The position numbers and the translations under genes were made by a program. A stretch of 11,840 nt of DNA from an uncultured Clostridia bacterium. GTDB taxonomy: Bacteria; Bacillota; Clostridia; Lachnospirales; Anaerotignaceae. Under the pieces are notes generated by a model that was not told the origin of the DNA, made no database searches, and saw only the letters and a program-made list of their open reading frames with translations. This document shows positions 573-11,402 of this stretch, piece by piece. The DNA lies in assembly GCA_958420075.1 (NCBI GenBank), contig CATZIM010000030.1:1-11840 (forward strand), read 5' to 3'. Numbering within the stretch: the first letter of the stretch is position 1; the number at the start of each line of letters is the position of its first letter.

Positions 573-582
573 AAAGGGTGAT
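573..582 (+). promoter_or_regulatory. Ribosome binding site that fixes the citrate synthase start
   Basis: AAAGGGTGAT closely matches the anti-Shine-Dalgarno complement AGGAGGTGAT. It ends four bases before TTG 587, with the GGG core eight bases away. The in-frame GTG at 578 lies inside this site and is therefore unlikely to be the start. Confidence 0.7.
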
Positions 583-586
583 TCTA

Positions 587-1969
587 TTGCTTACTTACAA
601 CAAGAAGAAAAATCTGCTGGAACTGTATAAGTATCAGTACAGCCTGCAGGATGTTCAAGAACCAAACCTGTACCGTGACAACTTCAATTATGACGAAGTA
701 CCAAAAGTTACATTCAACTATCGACTGGTTCCTATGAACTGTCCTGACGAAATCTGGATCACTGATACAACTTTCCGTGACGGCCAGCAGGCACGTGCAC
801 CCTATACCGTTGATCAGATTGTAACATTATATAAAATGTTAAGCCGTCTGGGCGGCCCCAAAGGCAAAATCAGAACCTGCGAATTTTTCCTTTACAGCGA
901 AAATGACCGCAAAGCCATTCGCGCCTGTCAGGAACAGGGATTGAAATTCCCCGAAATCACTGGTTGGATTCGTGCCACCAAAGAGGACTTTAAACTGGTA
1001 AAAGATATGGATCTGGAAGAATGCGGCATTCTGGTAAGCTGCTCTGACTACCATATTTTCAATAAATTACATAAAACAAGAAAACAGGCAATGGACGGTT
1101 ATCTGGAAGTGGTAAAAGCCGCTTTAGACATGGGCATTCGTCCCCGCTGCCATTTTGAAGACGTTACCAGAGCCGATTTCTACGGCTTTGTAGTTCCCTT
1201 TGCTCAGGAACTGCGTCACCTTATGGAGCAGTATCAGATTCCCGTAAAAATCCGTTTCTGCGACACCATGGGCTATGGCGTTCCCTATCCTGGCGCTACA
1301 CTGCCCCGCAGCGTTCCCGGTATCATTTATGGTATCAACCACTTCGGTCAGTTCCCCAGCGAACTTATTGAATGGCACGGACACAACGACTTCTACAAAG
1401 CTGTTGTAAACGCTACTACCGCATGGCTCTACGGCGCATCTTCCGTAAACTGCTCTCTGCTGGGCATTGGCGAACGTACCGGCAACACACCACTGGAAGC
1501 TATGGTTATGGAATATGCACAGATCCGCGGCACACTGGATGGTATGGACCCTACCGTTATCACAGAAATTGCCGAATATTACGAAAAAGAACTTGGATAC
1601 AAGATTCCCGAAAGAACACCTTTTGTCGGCGCTGACTTCAACGTGACCCGCGCAGGCATCCACGCTGACGGCGTTGCAAAGGACGAAGAAATTTACAACA
1701 TCTTCAACACAGCAAAAATCCTGAACCGCCCTCTGGGTGTAGAAATCAACAAAAACTCCGGTTCTGCCGGCATCGCTTACTGGCTGAACCACAATCTGCA
1801 ATTAGAAGGTAATACAAAAATTGATAAAAACGCACCTGAAGTCGCACTGCTGAAAGATTGGGTAGATAAGCAGTACGAAGACGGCCGCGTTGCCTATATC
1901 AGTAAAGAAGAATTGATTGATGCCATCCAGGAACTGACACCACACCTTATGGCATACATCAAAGAATGA
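587..1969 (+). CDS. Re-citrate synthase (isopropylmalate/homocitrate synthase family)
   Basis: A DRE-TIM metallolyase-type Claisen condensing enzyme, probably joining acetyl-CoA and oxaloacetate to citrate in the cytoplasm. At about 460 residues it fits the clostridial Re-face citrate synthases, the type characterised in Clostridium kluyveri. Numbered from TTG 587, the conserved D-T-T-F-R-D-G-Q-Q begins at D60, with the catalytic R64-D65 pair. The metal-binding H-G-H-N-D begins at H264, and G-I-G-E-R-T-G-N-T-P-L-E follows. The TTG start is chosen from the ribosome binding site at 573-582. Aconitase follows after 23 bases and isocitrate dehydrogenase after that, which argues for citrate rather than isopropylmalate or homocitrate as product. 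Automated annotation often calls this clade isopropylmalate or homocitrate synthase. The family is certain; the Re-citrate assignment rests on context and remembered sequence similarity. Confidence 0.85.
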   Translation: MLTYNKKKNLLELYKYQYSLQDVQEPNLYRDNFNYDEVPKVTFNYRLVPMNCPDEIWITDTTFRDGQQARAPYTVDQIVTLYKMLSRLGGPKGKIRTCEFFLYSENDRKAIRACQEQGLKFPEITGWIRATKEDFKLVKDMDLEECGILVSCSDYHIFNKLHKTRKQAMDGYLEVVKAALDMGIRPRCHFEDVTRADFYGFVVPFAQELRHLMEQYQIPVKIRFCDTMGYGVPYPGATLPRSVPGIIYGINHFGQFPSELIEWHGHNDFYKAVVNATTAWLYGASSVNCSLLGIGERTGNTPLEAMVMEYAQIRGTLDGMDPTVITEIAEYYEKELGYKIPERTPFVGADFNVTRAGIHADGVAKDEEIYNIFNTAKILNRPLGVEINKNSGSAGIAYWLNHNLQLEGNTKIDKNAPEVALLKDWVDKQYEDGRVAYISKEELIDAIQELTPHLMAYIKE

Positions 1970-1992
1970 AAGAAAATTGAGGAGGCTTTCAC

Positions 1993-3921
1993 ATGAATAT
2001 CACTGAAAAACTGATTAAATCTCATCTGGTCAGCGGAGAAATGATTCCCGGCAAGGAAATCGCCATCAAAATTGACCAGACCCTGACACAGGATTCCACA
2101 GGCACAATGGCTTATCTGCAGTTTGAAGCCATTGGCATCCCCAGAGTCAAAACAGAAAAATCTGTTGCATACATCGACCACAACACATTACAGACAGGCT
2201 TTGAAAACGCCGATGACCACAAATATATCCAGACAGTTGCCAAAAAACACGGCATTTATTTCTCCAAACCTGGCAACGGCATCTGCCATCAGGTACATCT
2301 GGAACGTTTCGGCAAACCCGGCAAAACACTGCTGGGCTCTGACAGCCATACTCCTACTGGCGGCGGCATCGGTATGCTGGCCATCGGTGCAGGCGGTCTG
2401 GATGTAGCAGTTGCCATGGGCGGCGGCGCTTACTATCTGGCAATGCCCCGTGTTTGCCGTGTAGTACTGACTGGTAAACTGAGCCCTTGGGTAACTGCAA
2501 AAGACGTGATTCTGGAAGTACTGCGCAGACTGTCCGTAAAAGGCGGCGTCGGCAAAGTTATGGAATACGCTGGCGAAGGTGTAAAAACACTGAGCGTTCC
2601 CCAGAGAGCAACCATCACAAACATGGGCGCAGAACTGGGCGCAACTACATCCGTATTCCCCAGTGACGAAGTGACAAAAGCATTCCTGAAAGCACAGGGT
2701 CGTGAAGAAGACTGGATTGAACTGAAAGCAGACGATGACGCTATCTATGATGAAGAAATCACCATCGCTTTGGATGAAATCGAACCTTTGGTAGCATGTC
2801 CTCACAGCCCTGACAACATCAAAAAAGTAAGTGAAATCAAAGATCTGGCAGTGGATCAGGTTGCCATCGGCAGTTGCACAAACTCCTCTTACACAGATAT
2901 GATGACAGTTGCTGCTCTGCTGAAAGGCAAAACCGTTGACCCGAACGTAAGCCTTGTTATTGCTCCCGGCTCCAAACAGGTTATGAACATGCTGGCTGCC
3001 AACGGCGCACTGGCTGACATCATTTCCGCCGGCGCACGTATTCTGGAATGCGGCTGCGGCCCTTGTATCGGTATGGGTCAGGCGCCTGCAACCAATGCGG
3101 TATCCCTGCGTACCATCAACAGAAACTTTGAAGGCAGAAGCGGCACAAAATCCGCTCAGGTATACATCGTCAGCCCCGAAACAGCTGTTGCCAGCGCATT
3201 GACTGGGAAACTGACAGACCCTCATACATTGGGTGAAGCACCTGTCATCCCTATGCCTGAAGAATTCATGGTAAATGATAACCTGATCATCCCTCCCGCT
3301 CCCGAAGGCGAATGTGTGAAAGTAGTAAGAGGCCCCAATATCCAGCCTTTCCCCAAAAACACAAAAGTGCCTAAAGAAATCAAAGGCGGTGCGCTGATCA
3401 AAGTGGATGACAACATCACCACAGACCACATCATGCCCTCCAACGCAAAACTCCTGCCCTTCCGCTCCAACGTGCCTTATCTGGCAGATTACTGCCTGAC
3501 ACCTTGTGATCCGGAATTTCCTGCAAGAGCGAAAAAAGCTGGCGGCGGTTTCATCATTGCCGGTCAAAACTATGGTCAGGGCAGCAGCCGTGAACATGCG
3601 GCACTGGCACCTCTGCAGTTGGGCGTAAAAGCAGTTATCGCAAAATCCTTCGCACGTATCCACATGGCAAACCTGATCAACAATAGTATCCTGCCTCTGG
3701 TATTCGTCAACGAATGGGATTACGACAACATCAAACTCGGCGATGAATTTGTCATCAAATACGCTGCCGACCAGATTAAGGGCGCTGCACAGGGTCAGAT
3801 CGTCAATGTAACCTGTGTAAAAACCGGGGAAGAAATCCCTACTCGCCTGAACATCTCCGAACGTCAGAGAGATATTCTGCTGGCAGGCGGTCTGCTGAAC
3901 TATACAAAAGAATCCAACTAA
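1993..3921 (+). CDS. acn: Aconitate hydratase, compact single-chain type
   Basis: Converts citrate to isocitrate through cis-aconitate in the cytoplasm, using a [4Fe-4S] cluster. The three cluster ligands are visible as C295 in G-S-C-T-N-S-S and C355 and C358 in C-G-C-G-P-C-I-G. The C-terminal swivel domain is fused in the same chain and carries G530-S-S-R-E-H, the substrate-binding loop. At 642 residues it is shorter than the roughly 900-residue AcnA or AcnB and matches the small aconitase type known from Aquifex and many clostridia. Isopropylmalate isomerase and homoaconitase are usually two subunits, and the neighbours favour aconitase. The start has a GAGGAGG site at 1979-1985, seven bases upstream. 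It lies 23 bases after citrate synthase and 24 before isocitrate dehydrogenase, so the three are one transcript. Confidence 0.92.
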   Translation: MNITEKLIKSHLVSGEMIPGKEIAIKIDQTLTQDSTGTMAYLQFEAIGIPRVKTEKSVAYIDHNTLQTGFENADDHKYIQTVAKKHGIYFSKPGNGICHQVHLERFGKPGKTLLGSDSHTPTGGGIGMLAIGAGGLDVAVAMGGGAYYLAMPRVCRVVLTGKLSPWVTAKDVILEVLRRLSVKGGVGKVMEYAGEGVKTLSVPQRATITNMGAELGATTSVFPSDEVTKAFLKAQGREEDWIELKADDDAIYDEEITIALDEIEPLVACPHSPDNIKKVSEIKDLAVDQVAIGSCTNSSYTDMMTVAALLKGKTVDPNVSLVIAPGSKQVMNMLAANGALADIISAGARILECGCGPCIGMGQAPATNAVSLRTINRNFEGRSGTKSAQVYIVSPETAVASALTGKLTDPHTLGEAPVIPMPEEFMVNDNLIIPPAPEGECVKVVRGPNIQPFPKNTKVPKEIKGGALIKVDDNITTDHIMPSNAKLLPFRSNVPYLADYCLTPCDPEFPARAKKAGGGFIIAGQNYGQGSSREHAALAPLQLGVKAVIAKSFARIHMANLINNSILPLVFVNEWDYDNIKLGDEFVIKYAADQIKGAAQGQIVNVTCVKTGEEIPTRLNISERQRDILLAGGLLNYTKESN

Positions 3922-3945
3922 TGCAATTTAAGGAGGAAAAATTCC

Positions 3946-4944
3946 ATGTCATATAAAGTTACTTTGATCCCCGGTGACGGCAGCGGCCCGGAAGTCATTG
4001 CTGCCGCAAAAAGAGTTGTAGAAGCAACAGGCGTTGCCATCGAATGGGAACAGGCAGAAGCCGGTGCAGCCATGATTGAAAAATATGGCACTCCCCTGCC
4101 CGATGAAACCATCGAATCTATCCGCAGAAACGGCGTTGCGTTGAAAGGCCCTGTTACCACCCCTGTCGGTACCGGTTTCCGCAGTGTCAACGTAGCGATG
4201 CGTAAAATTTTCGACCTGTATGCAAACGTACGCCCTGCCAAAACTTATCCCGGTGTCATCAGCCGCTATGATAACATTGATCTGGTAGTCGTTCGTGAAA
4301 ACACTGAAGACCTGTACGCAGGCATTGAACATATGGTTGGCGAAGATGCGGCAGAAAGCATCAAACTCATCACCAGAAAAGGCTGCGAAAGAATCATCCG
4401 TTATGCTTTCGATTTTGCCGTCAGAGAAGGCAGAAAGAAAGTAACCGCTGTGCATAAAGCAAACATCATGAAATGCACAGACGGCATGTTCCTGGACATT
4501 GCAAGACAGATTGCAAAAGAATATCCTCAGATCGAATTCAACGACAGTATCGTAGACGCAATGTGCATGCGTCTGGTAATGCATCCCGAGGACTATGATG
4601 TACTGGTATGCCCCAACCTGTATGGTGACATCGTTTCCGACCTGTGCGCAGGTCTGGTAGGCGGTCTGGGCCTGACTCCCAGTGCAAACATCGGTGTCAG
4701 CGGCGCTATTTTCGAACCCATCCACGGTTCCGCTCCTGACATTGCCGGACAGCACAAAATCAATCCCACAGCGGCGATCCTCTCCGCTTCTCTGATGCTG
4801 GCGCATCTGGGCGAAGCAAAAGCTGCTGCGGACATTGAACAGGCTGTGACAAAAGTCATTTCTGAAGGCAAAACACTGACCCAGGATATGGGTGGTACTG
4901 CTTCCACAGAAGAATTTGCTGACGCAGTCATCGCAGCACTGTAA
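3946..4944 (+). CDS. icd: Isocitrate dehydrogenase, predicted NAD-dependent
   Basis: Oxidatively decarboxylates isocitrate to 2-oxoglutarate, completing the oxidative TCA branch. At 332 residues it is a short member of the isocitrate/isopropylmalate dehydrogenase family. S80 and N82 in F-R-S-V-N-V-A correspond to the isocitrate-contacting Ser and Asn of E. coli Icd (S113, N115). The catalytic Tyr is Y124 (E-D-L-Y-A-G) and the Lys is K171 (H-K-A-N-I-M). Metal-binding Asp residues are D228 and D232 in G-D-I-V-S-D. The cofactor loop reads S-A-P-D-I-A-G-Q, with D265-I266 where NADP enzymes such as E. coli Icd have Lys-Tyr. An acidic residue here marks NAD use. An AGGAGG site (3931-3936) lies nine bases from the ATG. 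It is the last gene before the terminator. Confidence 0.9.
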
Positions 4945-4960
4945 TATTCACAGAAAACAC

Positions 4961-5001
4961 AAAAGCTGGAAATTCAAGAATTTGAACTTCCAGCTTTTTT
5001 T
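4961..5001. terminator. Bidirectional intrinsic terminator between convergent operons
   Basis: AAAAGCTGGAA (4961-4971) pairs with TTCCAGCTTTT (4988-4998). Inside it, TTCAA (4973-4977) pairs with TTGAA (4982-4986) across one A·C mismatch and a GAAT loop. Seven T residues (4995-5001) follow on the plus strand. Read from the other side, the stem follows the stop codon of the minus-strand Fe-S gene almost at once and runs into CTTTTGTGTTTTC, so it can serve both operons. Confidence 0.85.
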
Positions 5002-5887
5002 ATGTTTCTTTTTCTTTTTTGCATGTTTTACAGCTTCCGCCGCATCCCAGTACAAAACCGGCGGAAATGGCGTCTGTATGGCATACGCTTTTACATTGCC
5101 CACAGCGGATACATTCGGGGCTGTTGATATTCTTCGTAACTTCTACACCCATTGGACAGATTTTCTCACAGGCACCGCAATGGTCGCAGCGGGAAGCGTC
5201 TACTTCCATGTGATAAAAGCTGAATCTTTGGAACAATCCATAGAAAGCACCCAAGGGGCAGATATATTTGCAGAAGGGTCTGCAAATCAATATGGAAGAA
5301 AGAATGGTCAATATCAGCAGAATCATTTTCCAGTTGAACAGCCAGCCAATCATTTCCCGCAAGCTTTCATTTGTCAGCATCAGGGGAATACCGCCTTCCA
5401 GTGTCCCTGCCGGACAAATATACTGGCAGAAGTACGGCGGCGCAATGCCAAAGGGATTGGCAAGAAACATAGGCAGCAATATAACCGGTACAGCCAACAT
5501 CACATATTTCAGATACCGCAATCCCTTATCCAACTTTGCAGGAACTTTTATCTTTGGACTTTTGATTTTATAGAGCAAGTCCTGCAAAAAACCGAAGGGA
5601 CAAAGGAAGCCGCAGACCACTCTGCCCAATAATACGCTGACAAAGAGCAAAAAACCGAATACATAATAACTGAATTGGAATTTTCGGTCACCCAGAACCG
5701 ACTGCAAAGCGCCAATGGGACATGCCCCTACGGCACCAGGGCAGGAATAGCAGTTCAAACCTGGTACACAGACGAATTTTTGCCCGCCTGTCTGTATCCT
5801 CCCCTGCGTAAAGCCAATCAGATAGCCATTGGACACAACTGTGGCAATCAGCTGTATGATATGACGTCTCTTTTCTGTTTTTTTCAT
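5000..5887 (-). CDS. Polytopic membrane [4Fe-4S] protein, NapH/Fer4_5-like
   Basis: A 295-residue integral membrane electron carrier with 22 cysteines. Predicted membrane segments lie near residues 11-27, 71-95, 126-146 and 183-204. Two NapH-type membrane-edge motifs are C92-G-F-L-C96-P-F-G and C202-R-P-F-C-K-Y-I-C210-P-L-G. An N-terminal C46-Y-S-C49-P...C56-P motif is also present. Two ferredoxin motifs follow at C234-x2-C-x2-C-x3-C244-P and C259-x2-C-x2-C-x3-C269. The tail adds C282-x3-C286-x2-C289. The ATG at 5887 is chosen because AGGAG lies seven bases upstream and the codon overlaps the preceding gene's stop (TGATG). A longer in-frame extension to 6022 lies over that other gene and is rejected. 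It probably moves electrons from a cytoplasmic donor to the thioredoxin-like lipoprotein; that role is inferred from context. Confidence 0.85.
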   Translation of the reverse strand: MKKTEKRRHIIQLIATVVSNGYLIGFTQGRIQTGGQKFVCVPGLNCYSCPGAVGACPIGALQSVLGDRKFQFSYYVFGFLLFVSVLLGRVVCGFLCPFGFLQDLLYKIKSPKIKVPAKLDKGLRYLKYVMLAVPVILLPMFLANPFGIAPPYFCQYICPAGTLEGGIPLMLTNESLREMIGWLFNWKMILLILTILSSILICRPFCKYICPLGAFYGLFQRFSFYHMEVDASRCDHCGACEKICPMGVEVTKNINSPECIRCGQCKSVCHTDAISAGFVLGCGGSCKTCKKEKET

Positions 5888-6045
5888 CAGCCTACTCCTA
5901 TACATTCCAGGCAAATGGTGATTGCCTTTTTTAATACCGTCAGATGTTCCTGACGGAGGAAGCCATAAGCCATCATGCCCATGGAAAAAAGAAGGAGCGG
6001 ATATTTGATCCATCCGCCCCAAACAGTATTCTGCTTACAATTCAT
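5887..6045 (-). CDS. 52-residue membrane miniprotein with CxxC motif (CD1871A-like)
   Basis: A small gene between the thioredoxin-like lipoprotein and the Fe-S protein. The product begins MNCKQNTVWGGWIKYPLLLF, has one hydrophobic segment (about residues 14-30), and ends K-A-I-T-I-C45-L-E-C48-I-G-V-G. The K-A-x-x-I-C-L-E-C-I-G tail matches, from memory, the CD1871A family of small CxxC proteins found beside such genes in clostridia. Its ATG overlaps the upstream stop (ATGA, 6045-6042) with a GGAG site eight bases before it. Its TGA overlaps the next ATG (TGATG, 5889-5885). All three genes are therefore translationally coupled. The function is unknown; the conserved Cys pair next to the membrane suggests a thiol/disulfide relay between the other two products. 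Confidence 0.82.
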   Translation of the reverse strand: MNCKQNTVWGGWIKYPLLLFSMGMMAYGFLRQEHLTVLKKAITICLECIGVG

Positions 6046-7169
6046 TGAATCAACTCCAGACGTGCATTGATTTCTTCCAGATAAGCCGCCTTGATTTCTC
6101 CTGATTTTCCAGGTACGCCTACAACAGGATTGCCAATGACATTCCCTTCTTTATCAATAAAGAATGTGGTAGGAGCGCTGGAAATATACTGGATTACATT
6201 TTCCTGCAGGCTATCACTGGGCAACAGCACCGGATATTTTACACCGCAGTAATCCAAAATTTCCTGTGTGAAAGCGGTATCATCACTGCCGTCAACACAA
6301 ATGGAAATCAGATTTACATTTTCCGGCAAAGCTTCATCCAGCTCTGCCAGTTCCGGCATTTCGGAAATGCAGGGATTACACCATGTTGCCCACACATTGA
6401 CAACCGTCATATCATAGTCTGCGAAGATATCCTGTGTGACGGTTTCCCCAGTCAACAGTGTGGTTTCAAAGTTGGTAAAACTACCGGAGAAATTGCTTTC
6501 CGGCACTGCAGATGCAGGGAAAATGAAGATCTTGTTTTTGAAATTTGGTCGATCTTCAATGATTGCATTCAAATTGCTTTTTTCCTCATCTGTCAGCACC
6601 AGAGCGCTGTAATCATCATTATATCCCAGATAATAATCGCTGTCAAAAGCTGTTGCGATCTTTTCCACGTTACTGTAGATGTTTGTAAATTCTGTATAAA
6701 CTTCTTGTGCTTTTTGATCATTCTTCGGCAAACGGCATACACCGGTGAAGAAGAAAATTTCATTGCTCAGCTTTGCAGAAAGTGCTTCCTGTTCTTCCGC
6801 AGAGAGATTTTCCGAGCCCAGCATCTGATCGGAAACATCCTGCGGAATATAGAATAACGTTACCGCATAAGGAGAAATGACACTTCCGCCCACTTTTCCT
6901 TTATTTAATCCCACTGCAACAGGTTCTGTATTGGTGATACCGAATCCCATTTCAGACTGGGCAAACCAGTTTTCATGATCACCCAAAAGAAATGTGGTGC
7001 CATCCAAGGTCGTCATAACCTCTGTGTTAAAGGCATCATTGACCTGTGCGCCATCATCTAAAGTAGAAACTGTGTGTTCTGACGTACTCTGCACCTCATC
7101 CGAAGCACACCCACTGAAGGCTGCCGTGCAAAGTGACAATGTCAAAAATACGCAAAGTAATTTTTTCAT
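6042..7169 (-). CDS. TlpA/thioredoxin-fold disulfide reductase lipoprotein
   Basis: A 375-residue exported lipoprotein. The N-terminus has a positively charged start, a hydrophobic core and a lipobox F18-S-G-C21, so it should be anchored to the outer face of the membrane. Residues about 22-235 form a domain I do not recognise. A TlpA/ResA-like thioredoxin domain occupies the C-terminal ~140 residues, with the redox site W260-A-T-W-C264-N-P-C267 and a later cis-proline loop (S-A-P-T-T-F-F-I-D). It probably reduces disulfides in extracytoplasmic proteins. A GGAGGA site lies eight bases before the ATG. It is the first gene of the three-gene operon, and its partners supply a route for electrons across the membrane. 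The natural substrate cannot be told from sequence. Confidence 0.88.
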   Translation of the reverse strand: MKKLLCVFLTLSLCTAAFSGCASDEVQSTSEHTVSTLDDGAQVNDAFNTEVMTTLDGTTFLLGDHENWFAQSEMGFGITNTEPVAVGLNKGKVGGSVISPYAVTLFYIPQDVSDQMLGSENLSAEEQEALSAKLSNEIFFFTGVCRLPKNDQKAQEVYTEFTNIYSNVEKIATAFDSDYYLGYNDDYSALVLTDEEKSNLNAIIEDRPNFKNKIFIFPASAVPESNFSGSFTNFETTLLTGETVTQDIFADYDMTVVNVWATWCNPCISEMPELAELDEALPENVNLISICVDGSDDTAFTQEILDYCGVKYPVLLPSDSLQENVIQYISSAPTTFFIDKEGNVIGNPVVGVPGKSGEIKAAYLEEINARLELIQ

Positions 7170-7280: not shown

Positions 7281-7330
7281 AAAAAATGATAGAAACATAG
7301 ATGTTCTAAAAGGATGAATACAACATCTAT
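7281..7330 (-). terminator. Weak terminator candidate after the activase gene
   Basis: On the minus strand ATAGATGTT (7330-7322) can pair with AACATCTAT (7305-7297) around a 16-base loop, followed by a T-rich run ending in six T residues (7286-7281). The stem is AT-rich and the loop is large, so it may be leaky. It overlaps the activase stop codon and lies just before the promoter of the next operon. Confidence 0.4.
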
Positions 7331-8226
7331 TACCTGTAATCCGCCAGACAAATGCCGGAATCCGTTATGATTTTTCGGAATTCATCCATTTCTTCTTCTG
7401 TGGGTGTGGCAAAGGTATCGTCTGGTGTTTCCATGCCCAATGCCTCATATTTTCCAAATCCGAATTTATGATAAGGCAGCAGTTCCATTTTTGCCTGCGG
7501 CAAATGGGTATGGACAAATGCCGCACTTGCTTTGATATTTTCCGCATCCGCATTGACGCCTTTGATGACAGGAATGCGGATAACGATTTCCGCCGGCAAT
7601 TCCTTCAGACGTTTGATGTTTTCCAGTATCTTTTCATTGCCAACACCTGTAAAATAGGCATGTTTTGCGGAATCCATATGTTTCAGATCCATGAAGATCA
7701 GATCCATCCGCTGCAAAACAGGCTTCAGCGCATCAAAATCAAAATAGCCGCAGCTTTCCATGGCTAAATGAAACCCCATGTCATATAATGTTTCGGAAAG
7801 TTCATTCAAAAATTCCCGCTGCATGGTGGTTTCTCCGCCGGAAAAAGTAATGCCGCCACCGGACTGCATATAAAACAGGCGGTGTTTTTTCACTTCTTCC
7901 ACAATTTCAGAAACCTCTTTTTCCACAACCATGCGTTTCTTGGCATTCTTCGGACAAACATCGGCGCACTTGCCGCATCCATCACATTTTTCCCGCTGTT
8001 TAGGGTCATTGAGATTAATTCCGTTGTGGACATGACAAACGGTGGTACAAAGTCCACAACCGATACAAAGCTTTTCATAAAATGCCGTTTTCGGCTTTTG
8101 GTCGAACCCTTCCGGATTGGAACACCATTTGCACCGCAGGGGACAGCCTGCCATAAAAATGGTGGTTCGAATACCCTCCCCGTCATTGACGGAAAAAGGC
8201 TGTAACTGCATCACATATCCCTTCAT
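7330..8226 (-). CDS. Glycyl-radical enzyme activating protein (radical SAM)
   Basis: Installs the glycyl radical on the enzyme encoded just upstream, by reductive cleavage of S-adenosylmethionine. The radical-SAM cluster motif is C28-P-L-R-C32-K-W-C35. A ferredoxin-like insert follows, with C54-x2-C-x2-C-x3-C64 and C81-x2-C-x2-C-x3-C91, typical of activases for glycyl-radical enzymes other than pyruvate formate-lyase. The SAM-binding S129-G-G-E follows. At 298 residues it has the usual size for this type; PflA is shorter and lacks the insert. The start at 8226 is chosen because AAAGGA (8241-8236) lies nine bases upstream; the earlier ATG at 8235 directly abuts it. It lies 60 bases after its partner, past a strong hairpin, which may lower its expression relative to the enzyme. 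Confidence 0.92.
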   Translation of the reverse strand: MKGYVMQLQPFSVNDGEGIRTTIFMAGCPLRCKWCSNPEGFDQKPKTAFYEKLCIGCGLCTTVCHVHNGINLNDPKQREKCDGCGKCADVCPKNAKKRMVVEKEVSEIVEEVKKHRLFYMQSGGGITFSGGETTMQREFLNELSETLYDMGFHLAMESCGYFDFDALKPVLQRMDLIFMDLKHMDSAKHAYFTGVGNEKILENIKRLKELPAEIVIRIPVIKGVNADAENIKASAAFVHTHLPQAKMELLPYHKFGFGKYEALGMETPDDTFATPTEEEMDEFRKIITDSGICLADYR

Positions 8227-8255
8227 TGATTCCATTCCTTTCTGCTATGAGAAGA

Positions 8256-8278
8256 ACAGACCGGCAATGCCGGTCTGT
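8256..8278 (-). other. GC-rich intercistronic hairpin between enzyme and activase
   Basis: ACAGACCGGC (8256-8265) and GCCGGTCTGT (8269-8278) form a perfect 10-bp stem with a three-base loop. It lies eight bases past the glycyl-radical enzyme stop codon and 30 bases before the activase start. No T-run follows on the minus strand, so it is not a standard terminator. It may protect the enzyme mRNA from 3' decay or set the ratio of the two products. Confidence 0.7.
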
Positions 8279-8286
8279 CAGATTTC

Positions 8287-10659
8287 TTAGAATGTTTCGT
8301 GTGCGTTTCTTGCAATGATAGAATCCTGCATGGACTTGGACAGGTTGACAAACTGTGTGCTGTAACCTGCTACACGCACCAGCAGATCTTTATAGTCTTC
8401 TGGATGTGCCTGTGCCTTGCGGAGGGTTTCTGTAGAAACCGTATTGAACTGCACATGGAATGCACCCAGCGCAAAGTAAGACTGAATCATAGCCCCCAGA
8501 TTTGCCTGACCACGCTTGGTTGCCACCAGATCCTGATTCAGACGGAGGTTCAGCAGTGTACCGCCGCTGTGGATATCCTGATTCAGTTTTGCAGCGGAAC
8601 GCATTGCAGCCAAAGGTGTGGAAGTATCTGTGCCTACATAAGGAGATACGCCTTCGGAAATGGGTTCTGTTGCCTTTCTGCCGTCCGGTGTAGCCCCCAG
8701 CACCTTACCTGTAGGCAGGTAGTTGGAAATGCCCATGAATGCGGACAGGAAGTGATTGCCATTGATATCTTTATATTTATGAACTTCCTGATAGAAGAAG
8801 TTGCCGATTTCTCTTGCAATATCATCTACATAATCATCGTCATTGCCGTATTTGGGAGCAGCCTGCACTTTTGCACGGAGTTCATCATAGCCTTCCCAGT
8901 TATTGTTGATGGCATCGATGATTTCTGCCATGGTAACAGATTTTTCTTCAAATACCAGCTTTTTGATGGCTGCCAGAGAGTTTGCCACAACGGCAATACC
9001 GATACCTGTGATAACGGGACCGATATTATATTTTGCGCCGCCTTTTGTCAGGTCTTTGCCGTTCTTCATGCAGTCCTCAATACATGCGGACATGAAAGGT
9101 CTGGGAACCATTTCCACATGGAGGCGCTGGGCTGTAATCAAGCTGATAACAGCCTGTTTGATGAGATAAGCAAACTGTTTGTAGAAAGCTTCTTCCACTT
9201 CTTCATATGTAGAGAATGTTTTAGGGTCTTTTTCATCCAAGGCGATTTTCTTGCCGCTGAGACGGCTTTTGCCTTCGTTTGTGGCAAATTCCAGAGCTGC
9301 CGCAAAGTTCAGGTTCGCTGCGGAAGTCCATTCCCCTGTTTTACGGAAATGAGGTACCACACAGCCACAGTTAGACCAGTCGCGAGCGTCTTCCGGTTCA
9401 TAACCTGCGTTTACCAGCATCTGATAGCCTGCGTTATCGCTGTGGATTGCAGGGAAGCCAGTGCCTTTGCTTACCAGATGTGTCACAGCCGCCATAAAAT
9501 CATCAGGGGTATCCGGATGGATACGTACGCTCAAGCCAGGCTGATGTGCCAGTGTATCTTCTGTTGCTTTCAAGCACATGTAAGACAGCTCATTGGTAGC
9601 GTCTTTCCCATCTCTGGTTCTGCCGCCTACTGTCAGGTTCTGGAACTGGTTATAACCAGCGAAGAAATCAGCTGTATTGGCGGAAATTGTCCAAACCCAT
9701 TCAGAAAGTTTCAGCCACAGGCATTCGATCAGTTCCTGTGCTTCATCAGGTGTGATGATACCAGCTTCTTTATCTGCTTTATAATAAGGATACATATACT
9801 GGTCGAAACGTCCGGGGTTCCATGCCAGAGGGTTTTCGGACAGAATGCCGCCCAGCTGTGTGAACCACATGAACTGCATCGCTTCACGGAAAGATTTGGG
9901 CGGATTTTCAGGAACTACATCACAGATTTCCGCAATCTGCAGCAGTTCTGCTTTTCTGGTTTCGTCAGCTTCTTCTGCTGCCATTTCTCTTGCTTTTTCC
10001 GCATAACGGTTTGCCAGACGGATGATACCATCACATACCAGCACGATGGAACGATAGAATTCCATCTTTTCCGCACCTTCCAGAGATGTAGCATCTAACT
10101 CTGCCAGATAAGCTTCCGCTTCTTTTTTGATGCCGCCAAAGCCTTTTTTGAACAGCACATCCTGATAGTCTGCGGTGATTTCCCCTACTGCCTGGCGCCA
10201 TTTGGAGTCTGTATCTACAAAACCTGTATCCACAGCCACCCGTTTGGTTTCCTCAGAAATCTGCGCCAAAAATGCTTCTTCCAGAGATTTATGTTCCCAA
10301 TAAGGGAAAATTTCTTTTCTGACAAATGCACGCTGTTCGTCTGTCATTTCATAAGGGTCCTGTGCACGGGTTGCAAAGGTATCCATTTCACGATCCACCC
10401 ATGTCCAGGAAAATTCAGGCGTCAGGATGCCGCATTTGCGAAATTCACCGGTGCAACCAACGATCAGTTCATCGGAGAAAATATTGACACATAATTCATT
10501 ACATGTGTCATAAAATGCCTGTGCACGGCGAATGGCAACAGGCTGCCCTTCCGTTCTTTTATGAGATTCTGTCCAGATGCGTGCTCTCTCGTAAGAAATG
10601 GCAGGCTTACTGTTTACATAGTTTAAACGGATTCGTTCTACTCTGTCGGTAATGCTCAT
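8287..10659 (-). CDS. Glycyl-radical enzyme of unassigned substrate (PFL-like domain)
   Basis: A 790-residue member of the pyruvate formate-lyase/glycerol dehydratase superfamily. The C-terminal radical motif is R-V-A-G765-Y-S, followed by Q-D-S-I-I-A-R. The thiyl cysteine is probably C433 in W-S-N-C431-G-C433-V-V-P-H. Length, cysteine and glycine positions resemble hydroxyproline dehydratase HypD (about 789 residues, C434, G765) and glycerol dehydratase. However, the Glu two residues after the cysteine, which those enzymes use as a base, is Val here. From a remembered alignment, HypD substrate residues D278 and H160 are also absent. Pyruvate formate-lyase has adjacent Cys-Cys, not C-G-C. The start at 10659 is chosen because GAGAGG lies nine bases upstream; the ATG at 10668 is too close to it. 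The gene lies between an XRE/cupin regulator and the activase. The reaction cannot be assigned. Confidence 0.9.
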   Translation of the reverse strand: MSITDRVERIRLNYVNSKPAISYERARIWTESHKRTEGQPVAIRRAQAFYDTCNELCVNIFSDELIVGCTGEFRKCGILTPEFSWTWVDREMDTFATRAQDPYEMTDEQRAFVRKEIFPYWEHKSLEEAFLAQISEETKRVAVDTGFVDTDSKWRQAVGEITADYQDVLFKKGFGGIKKEAEAYLAELDATSLEGAEKMEFYRSIVLVCDGIIRLANRYAEKAREMAAEEADETRKAELLQIAEICDVVPENPPKSFREAMQFMWFTQLGGILSENPLAWNPGRFDQYMYPYYKADKEAGIITPDEAQELIECLWLKLSEWVWTISANTADFFAGYNQFQNLTVGGRTRDGKDATNELSYMCLKATEDTLAHQPGLSVRIHPDTPDDFMAAVTHLVSKGTGFPAIHSDNAGYQMLVNAGYEPEDARDWSNCGCVVPHFRKTGEWTSAANLNFAAALEFATNEGKSRLSGKKIALDEKDPKTFSTYEEVEEAFYKQFAYLIKQAVISLITAQRLHVEMVPRPFMSACIEDCMKNGKDLTKGGAKYNIGPVITGIGIAVVANSLAAIKKLVFEEKSVTMAEIIDAINNNWEGYDELRAKVQAAPKYGNDDDYVDDIAREIGNFFYQEVHKYKDINGNHFLSAFMGISNYLPTGKVLGATPDGRKATEPISEGVSPYVGTDTSTPLAAMRSAAKLNQDIHSGGTLLNLRLNQDLVATKRGQANLGAMIQSYFALGAFHVQFNTVSTETLRKAQAHPEDYKDLLVRVAGYSTQFVNLSKSMQDSIIARNAHETF

Positions 10660-10684
10660 TGCGTTCATCCTCTCTTTTTATGTA

Positions 10685-11242
10685 CTATTTCTGATAATAA
10701 ATCAACATGCAGATGCGTGTAGTACTGTCCTTGCAGCCATTTTCATAAACATGTGGTCTGTCTGCTTGAAAATGAATGGCATTGCCCGCTTCCACTTGAT
10801 GGCGTTTTCCGTCTGTTTCCAATACAAAACACCCCTCATAGACCATTACAAATTCTTCTGTTCCTGGGTCATGGGCTTCGGAAATGGATCTGGAACCCGG
10901 ATCCAATTCAATATGCAGCATTTCAAATTTCCGTTCATGATGATACGGAAAAAATGGATACAGACGAAAATGTCCGCCATCACTGAGAAGCGGGTTTACC
11001 TCATCTTTAAAAATAATTTCCGCTTCTTTCTCGGACTGCTCCAAAAGACCTGTAAAAGAGATATGAAGCCCTGTGGCAATTTTCCATAAAGTAGCTATTG
11101 TCGGACTGGATTCCCCCCGTTCGATCTGCCCCAACATGCTTTTGCTGACGCCCGTCATTTCCGAAACAGCGTCCAGACTCCATTTATTCTCTTTTCGTAT
11201 CCTTTTTAGGTTTTCAGCAATAATACCGCTCATTGTATCCAT
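10685..11242 (-). CDS. XRE-family regulator with C-terminal cupin sensor
   Basis: A 185-residue cytoplasmic DNA-binding regulator. A helix-turn-helix of the Cro/C1 type spans about residues 9-65 (S-L-D-A-V-S-E-M-T-G-V-S-K-S-M-L-G-Q-I-E then R-G). A single cupin domain spans about 105-182, with likely metal or ligand positions H124, E129/E130 and H164. Such proteins usually sense a small molecule through the cupin and control neighbouring catabolic genes, as PuuR does for putrescine. The start is set by AGGAGGA, with AGGAGG seven bases before ATG 11242; an open extension to 11383 has no support and overlaps the promoters. It is 25 bases upstream of the glycyl-radical enzyme, so it probably autoregulates and controls that enzyme. 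The ligand is unknown. Confidence 0.88.
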   Translation of the reverse strand: MDTMSGIIAENLKRIRKENKWSLDAVSEMTGVSKSMLGQIERGESSPTIATLWKIATGLHISFTGLLEQSEKEAEIIFKDEVNPLLSDGGHFRLYPFFPYHHERKFEMLHIELDPGSRSISEAHDPGTEEFVMVYEGCFVLETDGKRHQVEAGNAIHFQADRPHVYENGCKDSTTRICMLIYYQK

Positions 11243-11305: not shown

Positions 11306-11350
11306 TGAATTGGTATTGCGGCACTTTTCATAGACAGCGTCTAAAATGTA

Positions 11351-11360
11351 CGTTATAACG
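11351..11360. promoter_or_regulatory. Perfect 10-bp palindrome between the two promoters
   Basis: CGTTATAACG lies just downstream of the predicted P1 start (near 11367) and upstream of P2. It could be an operator for the downstream regulator, but it is short and may be chance. Confidence 0.35.
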
Positions 11361-11373
11361 CATCTATATTGGA

Positions 11374-11402
11374 AGCGTATCACACTGCACGGAATTTGTC
11401 AA
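11374..11402 (-). promoter_or_regulatory. Distal promoter P1 of the regulator/glycyl-radical operon
   Basis: On the minus strand, a perfect TTGACA (11402-11397), a 17-base spacer and TACGCT (11379-11374) preceded by TGA, giving an extended-10 TGnTAnnnT. The -10 is weak by itself (3 of 6). It has the same layout as P2, 97 bp further downstream. Confidence 0.55.

What the first reader, a model, noticed from the sequence alone, without database searches (positions are those of the whole stretch)
8287..10659. Glycyl-radical enzyme with a C-G-C-V-V-P active-site loop in place of C-V-E
The sequence shows N-C431-G-C433-V-V435-P-H at the thiyl-radical loop and the radical glycine at G765. Known dehydratases and C-N/C-S lyases of this superfamily (glycerol dehydratase, CutC, HypD, isethionate lyase) have Glu two residues after the cysteine. 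The decarboxylase HPAD also has Glu there. Pyruvate formate-lyase has Cys-Cys. Val at this site with a second Cys two residues earlier fits none of these. Yet the overall length and scaffold look HypD-like. It may be a glycyl-radical clade with an undescribed reaction.
Basis: partly seen in the sequence, partly recalled or inferred. Interest (0 to 1): 0.72.

Follow-up and report, generated by a model that had tools for sequence, protein, structure and literature searches.

The report
Radical enzyme lacking its usual glutamate
A gut anaerobe carries an oxygen-sensitive radical enzyme, found in many fermenting bacteria, in which the glutamate that related enzymes use to split molecules is replaced by valine throughout the group, so it probably carries out a reaction that has not been described yet.

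Summary
The gene at 8287-10668 (-; start more likely 10659) encodes a complete glycyl-radical enzyme (GRE) with loop N-C-G-C-V-V-P-H and radical Gly in RVAGY, with its activase directly downstream. The loop marks one orthologous clade: 51 of 51 full-length members aligned have Val where 73 of 76 other GREs have Glu, and the clade is one branch with 100% support. It branches with choline lyase CutC and N-methyl-cis-4-hydroxy-L-proline dehydratase, both C-x-E, so Glu was lost inside the eliminase branch. No NCBIfam equivalog reaches its cut-off. New here: a cupin-XRE regulator and a conserved palindrome TRYGTTATAACRYA at the operon. In one genome (Sedimentibacter hydroxybenzoicus) the same tandem operator precedes an AGCS amino-acid carrier gene. 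In some lineages M20 amino-acyl hydrolases join the operon. Best reading: a GRE acting on a small amino acid or amine without hydroxyl-dependent 1,2-elimination. Substrate and reaction are inferred, not shown.

The parts
8287..10668 (-). Glycyl-radical enzyme, 793 aa from 10668, 790 aa from the likelier start at 10659
   Evidence: Pfam PF02901 754 bits and PF01228 110.8 bits; predicted structure pLDDT 93.0 and GRE fold
9349..9372 (-). Cys loop N433-C434-G435-C436-V437-V438-P439-H440; C436 is the thiyl-radical cysteine, V438 stands where other GREs have Glu
   Evidence: alignment with 76 other GREs
8365..8367 (-). Codon of the radical glycine G768 in RVAGYS
   Evidence: PF01228 match
10180..10200 (-). 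Codons of W157-R-Q-A-V-G-E163, first barrel strand; E163 aligns with the CutC Asp216 site, W157 is clade-specific
   Evidence: site names from PMC8473560 passages
7330..8235 (-). Radical-SAM GRE activase with CX3CX2C (CPLRCKWC) and ferredoxin-like cysteine motifs
   Evidence: TIGR02494 329 bits over cut-off 174.35; sequence
10685..11242 (-). Cupin-XRE regulator gene; true start probably ATG 11242 (MDTMSG), not the GTG at 11383
   Evidence: Pfam HTH_3 and Cupin_2; operator lies inside the GTG-started extension; same gene family in 28 of 55 clade loci
11349..11362 (-). Operator-like palindrome TGCGTTATAACGTA (consensus TRYGTTATAACRYA)
11374..11402 (-). Promoter-like TTGACA (11402-11397), 17 nt, TACGCT (11379-11374), just upstream of the operator; weak second hexamer, not listed by the promoter scan
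   Evidence: letters checked; not in the list
8256..8278 (.). 10-pair hairpin between the GRE and activase genes, possibly for unequal expression
   Evidence: terminator-like on the + strand

Best explanation
A previously undescribed functional group of glycyl-radical enzymes. The activase puts a radical on G768, which makes a thiyl radical on C436, as in other GREs. The substrate is most likely a small amino acid or amine: E163 with F336 and F342 occupies the sites with which CutC holds its ammonium group, and V438 removes the negative charge of the missing Glu, so that an uncharged part or the carboxylate of the substrate can sit on the Cys loop. Because the Glu that deprotonates the substrate hydroxyl is absent, the reaction is probably not the classical hydroxyl-dependent 1,2-elimination but another hydrogen-abstraction reaction (epimerisation, decarboxylation, C-C cleavage or rearrangement) on a non-hydroxylated substrate. 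A cupin-XRE regulator, presumably sensing substrate or product, controls the operon through TRYGTTATAACRYA. Shown: sequence, clade, conserved loop, activase, conservation of regulator and palindrome. Inferred: radical transfer in this protein, substrate class, loss of elimination chemistry, pairing of regulator and operator.
For: Val in 51 of 51 clade rows against Glu in 73 of 76 others; one branch with 100% SH-aLRT next to CutC and the 8id1 family, both binders of cationic amines; acid and Phe at the CutC ammonium sites (sites named). The loop Glu deprotonates the hydroxyl in the IslA mechanism and E470Q is inactive. In 15 of 36 genomes or records searched a strict palindrome lies at the GRE operon. 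The only 19-bp tandem pair away from a GRE operon precedes an AGCS amino-acid carrier gene (TIGR00835, 534 bits over 272.65). M20 hydrolases sit in the operon in L015, L016, L035, L036, L039 and L041, and a methylaspartate-pathway operon follows in L029.
Against: No assay and no ligand. Pocket residues are placed by alignment, not by coordinates. The carrier site is present in one genome only; its four nearest orthologues lack a strict site (best 2 to 4 mismatches). The 6 strict sites away from the GRE operon are no more than chance (25 in the reversed-pattern control). 27 of 55 loci lack the cupin-XRE cluster. M20 genes are common in such genomes, and most operons have other neighbours, several with no amino-acid link. 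Another acid, such as E163, could replace the lost Glu.
Confidence: 0.5

Rival explanations
1. A modified eliminase: still a 1,2-elimination of an amine or hydroxyl group, with E163, H440 or a backbone group doing the work of the lost Glu, or a substrate that needs no base.
For: The clade lies inside the eliminase branch, next to CutC and N-methyl-cis-4-hydroxy-L-proline dehydratase, and shares their acid at position 163; H440 is invariant and unique to the clade.
Against: The 8id1 family has both the acid at 163 and the loop Glu, so E163 is not by itself a replacement. Loss of the loop Glu abolishes activity in IslA.
Confidence: 0.27
2. A decarboxylase of hydrophobic acids (arylacetate or branched-chain type) fed by M20 hydrolases that free such acids from amino-acid conjugates.
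For: GRE decarboxylases tolerate other residues at this site: a Glu-to-Gln change in indoleacetate decarboxylase was made to mimic phenylacetate decarboxylase (passages). The pocket gains Trp, Leu and Val. The L016 hydrolase is nearest to IAA-amino-acid hydrolase and N-acyl-glutamine aminoacylase.
Against: That same Glu-to-Gln variant made no skatole. The clade is far from HPAD in the tree, and arylacetate decarboxylase 7e7l ranks low in score and Z (45.6). The window's neighbours include no M20 gene.
Confidence: 0.1
3. A biosynthetic or housekeeping role in branched-chain, aspartate-family or CoA metabolism, suggested by the neighbours.
For: GRE and activase are the last genes of an ilvD-leuACDB-DUF815-ilvA-ilvE run in L024, L025, L026 and L051 and follow an aspartokinase in L022 and L027 (models run on L024 and L022, the rest by clustering); coaBC lies upstream in the window.
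Against: Related rumen Clostridiales loci have murB-rapZ-whiA (L038) or nicotinate phosphoribosyltransferase (L045) upstream instead, so the pair looks inserted behind various operons. In the window a terminator-like hairpin (11530-11491) and the operator separate coaBC from the GRE operon.
Confidence: 0.08

Closest known systems
Choline trimethylamine-lyase CutC
   Same: Nearest by sequence score (717.5 bits for a two-domain chain) and by Z (56.9, rmsd 1.4, 790 residues, 37% identity); shares the fork in the tree, the Phe pair and an acid at the ammonium site
   Different: Loop C-V-E in CutC, C-V-V here; Tyr506, Thr334 and Asp216 sites are Asn/Ser/Thr, Leu and Glu; below the CutC cut-off (726.5 of 1050 bits); no microcompartment genes recognised in the window
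N-methyl-cis-4-hydroxy-L-proline dehydratase (PDB 8id1; title)
   Same: Highest identity in the structural comparison (40%), same fork in the tree, Glu at 163, C-G-C loop
   Different: Keeps the loop Glu and has Arg at 159, which the clade lacks
trans-4-hydroxy-L-proline dehydratase HypD
   Different: C-V-E loop, His at 163, Arg at 159; separate branch; 622 of 1100 bits
4-hydroxyphenylacetate and indoleacetate decarboxylases
   Same: GRE fold; some act on products of amino-acid fermentation
   Different: C-x-E loop in the HPAD rows bar one; HPAD Glu at 554 is Thr here; 351.8 of 1150 and 439.9 of 1100 bits
Pyruvate formate-lyase
   Same: No Glu after the radical Cys; two cysteines close together
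   Different: C-C-V-S loop; 148.9 bits against a cut-off of 994.2; distant branch

Membership tests
Glycyl-radical enzyme superfamily | Gly-radical domain with RVxGY-type loop, barrel with a catalytic Cys, and a radical-SAM activase gene beside it | tested here: met
   Pfam and NCBIfam matches, structure, activase 329 of 174.35 bits
Glycyl-radical enzyme superfamily | Radical detected on the glycine | not testable with these tools
   needs EPR on activated protein
Formate C-acetyltransferase/glycerol dehydratase subfamily (TIGR01774) | Score over the curated cut-off | tested here: met
   691.9 against 678.2 bits
GRE eliminases | C-x-E motif in the Cys loop | tested here: not met
   C-V-V in 51 of 51 clade rows; motif named as conserved in eliminases in PMC8473560
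CutC | NCBIfam equivalog cut-off | tested here: not met
   726.5 of 1050 bits
HypD | NCBIfam equivalog cut-off; His160, Arg156 and loop Glu | tested here: not met
   622 of 1100 bits; Glu, Gln/Asn/Ser and Val at these sites
HPAD and IAD | NCBIfam equivalog cut-offs; C-x-E | tested here: not met
   351.8 of 1150 and 439.9 of 1100 bits
HpsG | NCBIfam equivalog cut-off; C-x-E | tested here: not met
   671.8 of 1000 bits
Pyruvate formate-lyase | Adjacent Cys-Cys pair; TIGR01255 cut-off | tested here: not met
   C-G-C, 148.9 of 994.2 bits
X-succinate synthases (BSS, MASS) | Accessory small subunits and a fumarate-binding Arg after the Cys loop | tested here: inconclusive
   No accessory-subunit gene recognised in the window; no BSS sequence was in my alignment, so the Arg site was not aligned; BSS and MASS rank low
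N-methyl-cis-4-hydroxy-L-proline dehydratase (8id1 family) | Loop C-V-E and Arg at 159 | tested here: not met
   (5 rows taken as that family by their likeness to 8id1)

The most novel reading that the evidence does not exclude
A GRE that abstracts a hydrogen next to the carboxylate of a free, non-hydroxylated small amino acid (alanine-like) and uses the stabilised radical for chemistry new to the superfamily, for instance epimerisation with the invariant second cysteine C434 returning hydrogen from the other face, or decarboxylation. It would be a regulated radical step of amino-acid metabolism shared by Clostridia, Negativicutes and some other anaerobes.
Probability: 0.15. Interest if true: 0.88.

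Novelty: new variant of a known kind. Interest (0 to 1): 0.62.

Why it matters
The loop glutamate is a catalytic base in GRE eliminase mechanisms. A widespread family that has lost it while keeping the radical machinery marks a likely new reaction in fermenting anaerobes, gut species among them. It is also a natural test of what the Glu does: V438E in this clade and Glu-to-Val in CutC would be paired experiments. The regulator and palindrome described here give a direct route to the ligand and so to the pathway.

Tried and rejected
Branched-chain amino-acid biosynthesis as the pathway: dropped as the main reading because related loci have unrelated genes upstream. CoA or beta-alanine role from coaBC: put aside because a terminator-like hairpin and a separate operator lie between. 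Alanine-racemase promoter site in G001 (L159): it matches the relaxed pattern without mismatch, but reads as an ordinary -10 box (TATAAT) and is not counted. Relaxed operator pattern with one mismatch: as frequent as its control, useless. YbaK-like gene site in Clostridium sp. OS1-26 (L151): perfect single site, no tandem partner, and the protein is below the YbaK cut-off (69.6 of 153.25 bits), left as unproven. Second Cys as a unique mark: rejected, since C-G-C also occurs in the 8id1 family. Viral fold library: nothing useful. Paper searches (CC-licensed PMC papers; listings with abstract starts, with no hit): I recognised no paper on this clade among the listed rows, which were often a part of the hits; no paper behind 8id1 or 8iof was recognised, so their names come from the entry titles. 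Papers of which I saw passages: PMC8473560, PMC9248008, PMC12358834, PMC11528403 (and section 8 in full). Rows dropped before the alignment counts: of 142 GRE reading frames (59 clade, 83 others) short clade rows and near-identical rows were left out, giving 51 (with the window's) and 76; the tree then took 26 and 49 of these.

Full report
1. The observation. The window encodes on the minus strand a 793-aa ORF (10668-8287) with full PFL-like and Gly-radical domains. In the 793-aa numbering used below these are C434, C436, V438, H440 and G768. The radical-SAM activase follows at 8235-7330 with a CX3CX2C motif and scores over its NCBIfam cut-off. The predicted structure is confident (pLDDT 93.0, pTM 0.92), and CutC, glycerol and propanediol dehydratases and HypD match over more than 780 residues. 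So it is a complete, probably functional GRE.

2. A discrete clade. A scan of genome contigs (80 best of 589 relatives kept) gave close orthologues in Anaerotignum, Clostridium magnum, Sedimentibacter, Metaclostridioides, two genomes titled Clostridioides difficile, Dethiosulfatibacter, Mogibacterium, Megasphaera, Anaeroglobus, Sporomusa, Pectinatus, Desulforamulus, Oleispirillum, a Synergistaceae and a deltaproteobacterial MAG and others, at 59-99% identity; the next relatives fall to about 41%. In a sample of 398 genomes of the phylum 5 hold a member, with the same gap between 62% and 42%. Of the 55 clade loci 54 encode NCGCVVPH; L058 ends before it. On one alignment of 51 full-length members and 76 other GREs, position 438 is Val in 51 of 51 against Glu 73, Ser 2, Ala 1 of 76; the Ser rows are PFL, the Ala row an HPAD-family protein. 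In all, 41 positions are conserved in at least 95% of the clade and found in under 15% of the others, among them W157, E163, L281, W324, W326, N433, C434, V438, H440, V552, T554, the run A643-F-M-G646, and Q772. A maximum-likelihood tree (quick method, 26 members and 49 others) makes the clade one branch with 100% SH-aLRT, in a fork with CutC and the family of PDB 8id1, with HpsG next outside. 8id1 is titled N-methyl-cis-4-hydroxy-L-proline dehydratase. As these neighbours keep C-x-E, the Glu was most simply lost once, at the base of this clade.

4. The pocket, by alignment only. Using substrate sites named for CutC, HypD and IslA in PMC8473560 (passages), the clade has an acid at the CutC Asp216 site (E163) and Phe at the Phe389 and Phe395 sites (F336, F342); Phe395 is the residue given there as the cation-pi partner of choline. 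It lacks the Arg of HypD and of the 8id1 family (Gln, Asn or Ser at 159). The Tyr506 and Thr334 sites are Asn/Ser/Thr and Leu. This fits a cationic, otherwise mostly apolar or differently held substrate. In the mechanism proposed for IslA the loop Glu deprotonates the substrate hydroxyl, and E470Q loses all activity. In X-succinate synthases a substrate carboxylate sits in the Cys-loop oxyanion hole (PMC12358834 passages). Val instead of Glu would remove charge repulsion against such a carboxylate. This is inference; no coordinates were at hand.

5. Context. Among 55 clade loci the activase cluster is present in 52, the cupin-XRE cluster in 28 and a GntR-FCD cluster in 6. Beyond that the operons vary. 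M20 hydrolases stand in the operon in L015, L016, L035, L036, L039 and L041: five are nearest to the glutamate-carboxypeptidase model PRK06133, all below its cut-off, and L039 to carboxypeptidase G2 among solved structures; L016 is of the amidohydrolase type, nearest to YxeP, IAA-amino-acid hydrolase and N-acyl-glutamine aminoacylase. In four of these loci (L015, L016, L039, L041) a pair of small proteins, DUF5058 plus an unassigned partner or two Gate-domain proteins, accompanies them; that they transport is my inference. L035 (Dethiosulfatibacter) has a DcuC/YfcC-type carrier, two enolase-superfamily genes, an M20 and a CaiB-type CoA-transferase directly before the GRE; NCBIfam names the two o-succinylbenzoate synthase, and that such proteins can be N-acyl-amino-acid racemases is recalled. 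L029 has glutamate mutase S, L and E and methylaspartase genes after it, all over cut-off. In rumen Clostridiales (Mogibacterium MAGs and kin) the pair follows at least four unrelated kinds of gene, which weakens any single-neighbour argument.

6. The operator. Upstream sequences of regulator and GRE share the palindrome TRYGTTATAACRYA. In the window it lies at 11349-11362, inside the GTG-started extension of the regulator ORF, which moves the regulator's likely start to 11242. In 36 genomes or records (10, 26; G152 and G409 are probably the same genome) there are 21 strict sites; 15, in 15 genomes, lie at the GRE operon, and 18 genomes have none. The other 6 are no more than the reversed-pattern control would give (25 sites). 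Many GRE operons carry two sites 19 bp apart: 9 of 11 distinct pairs in the 219 loci held have exactly this spacing (pairs repeated in overlapping loci counted once by me), and one mononucleotide shuffle of all 219 loci gave no pair. The only such pair away from a GRE operon lies about 44 bp upstream of an AGCS amino-acid carrier gene in Sedimentibacter hydroxybenzoicus (TIGR00835, 534.3 bits over 272.65). Its four nearest orthologues in related genomes lack a strict site, so this is one genome's evidence. AGCS carriers are known for alanine and glycine (recalled). That the cupin-XRE protein binds the palindrome is inferred from co-occurrence.

7. Verdict. The most likely picture is a regulated GRE for a small amino acid or amine, with radical chemistry that does not need the loop Glu. 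I put 0.5 on this, 0.27 on a modified eliminase, 0.1 on a decarboxylase of hydrophobic acids and 0.08 on a biosynthetic role. The reaction itself is unknown. I recognised no paper on the clade in the listings; subscription papers are mostly missing from that library.

Noticed in passing
L130 (genome G247), HPAD-family GRE: A protein over the HPAD NCBIfam cut-off (1314.2 of 1150 bits) has C-L-A instead of C-L-E in its Cys loop.
   Followed up: no
window 578-4944 (+): Three genes in a row: an HMGL-family acyltransferase (homocitrate/isopropylmalate-synthase-like, perhaps a Re-citrate synthase, recalled), an aconitase and an isocitrate-dehydrogenase-like gene, convergent to the GRE operon.
   Followed up: partly
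window 5000-7169 (-): A TlpA/ResA-like thioredoxin-fold protein and a NapH-like ferredoxin-type membrane protein follow the activase in a few Anaerotignum loci only (4 of 55); a promoter-like site at 7243-7215 suggests a unit of their own.
   Followed up: partly
window 8256-8278: A 10-pair hairpin lies between the GRE and activase genes.
   Followed up: no
L119, record NZ_CP154629.1: The record is titled plasmid pTPELB2 but is 2.63 Mb long, so probably the chromosome of Acetoanaerobium noterae; it carries the GRE, activase and regulator.
   Followed up: partly
L061, 7520 and 9940: Two different GRE genes stand next to each other in a Synergistes MAG, one of the 8id1 family and one a long, isolated branch.
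   Followed up: no
L018, L048, L052: The GRE reading frame is split in these three contigs, either assembly errors or decaying genes.
   Followed up: no
L151 (Clostridium sp. OS1-26): A perfect operator palindrome lies just upstream of a YbaK-like aminoacyl-tRNA deacylase gene.
   Followed up: partly
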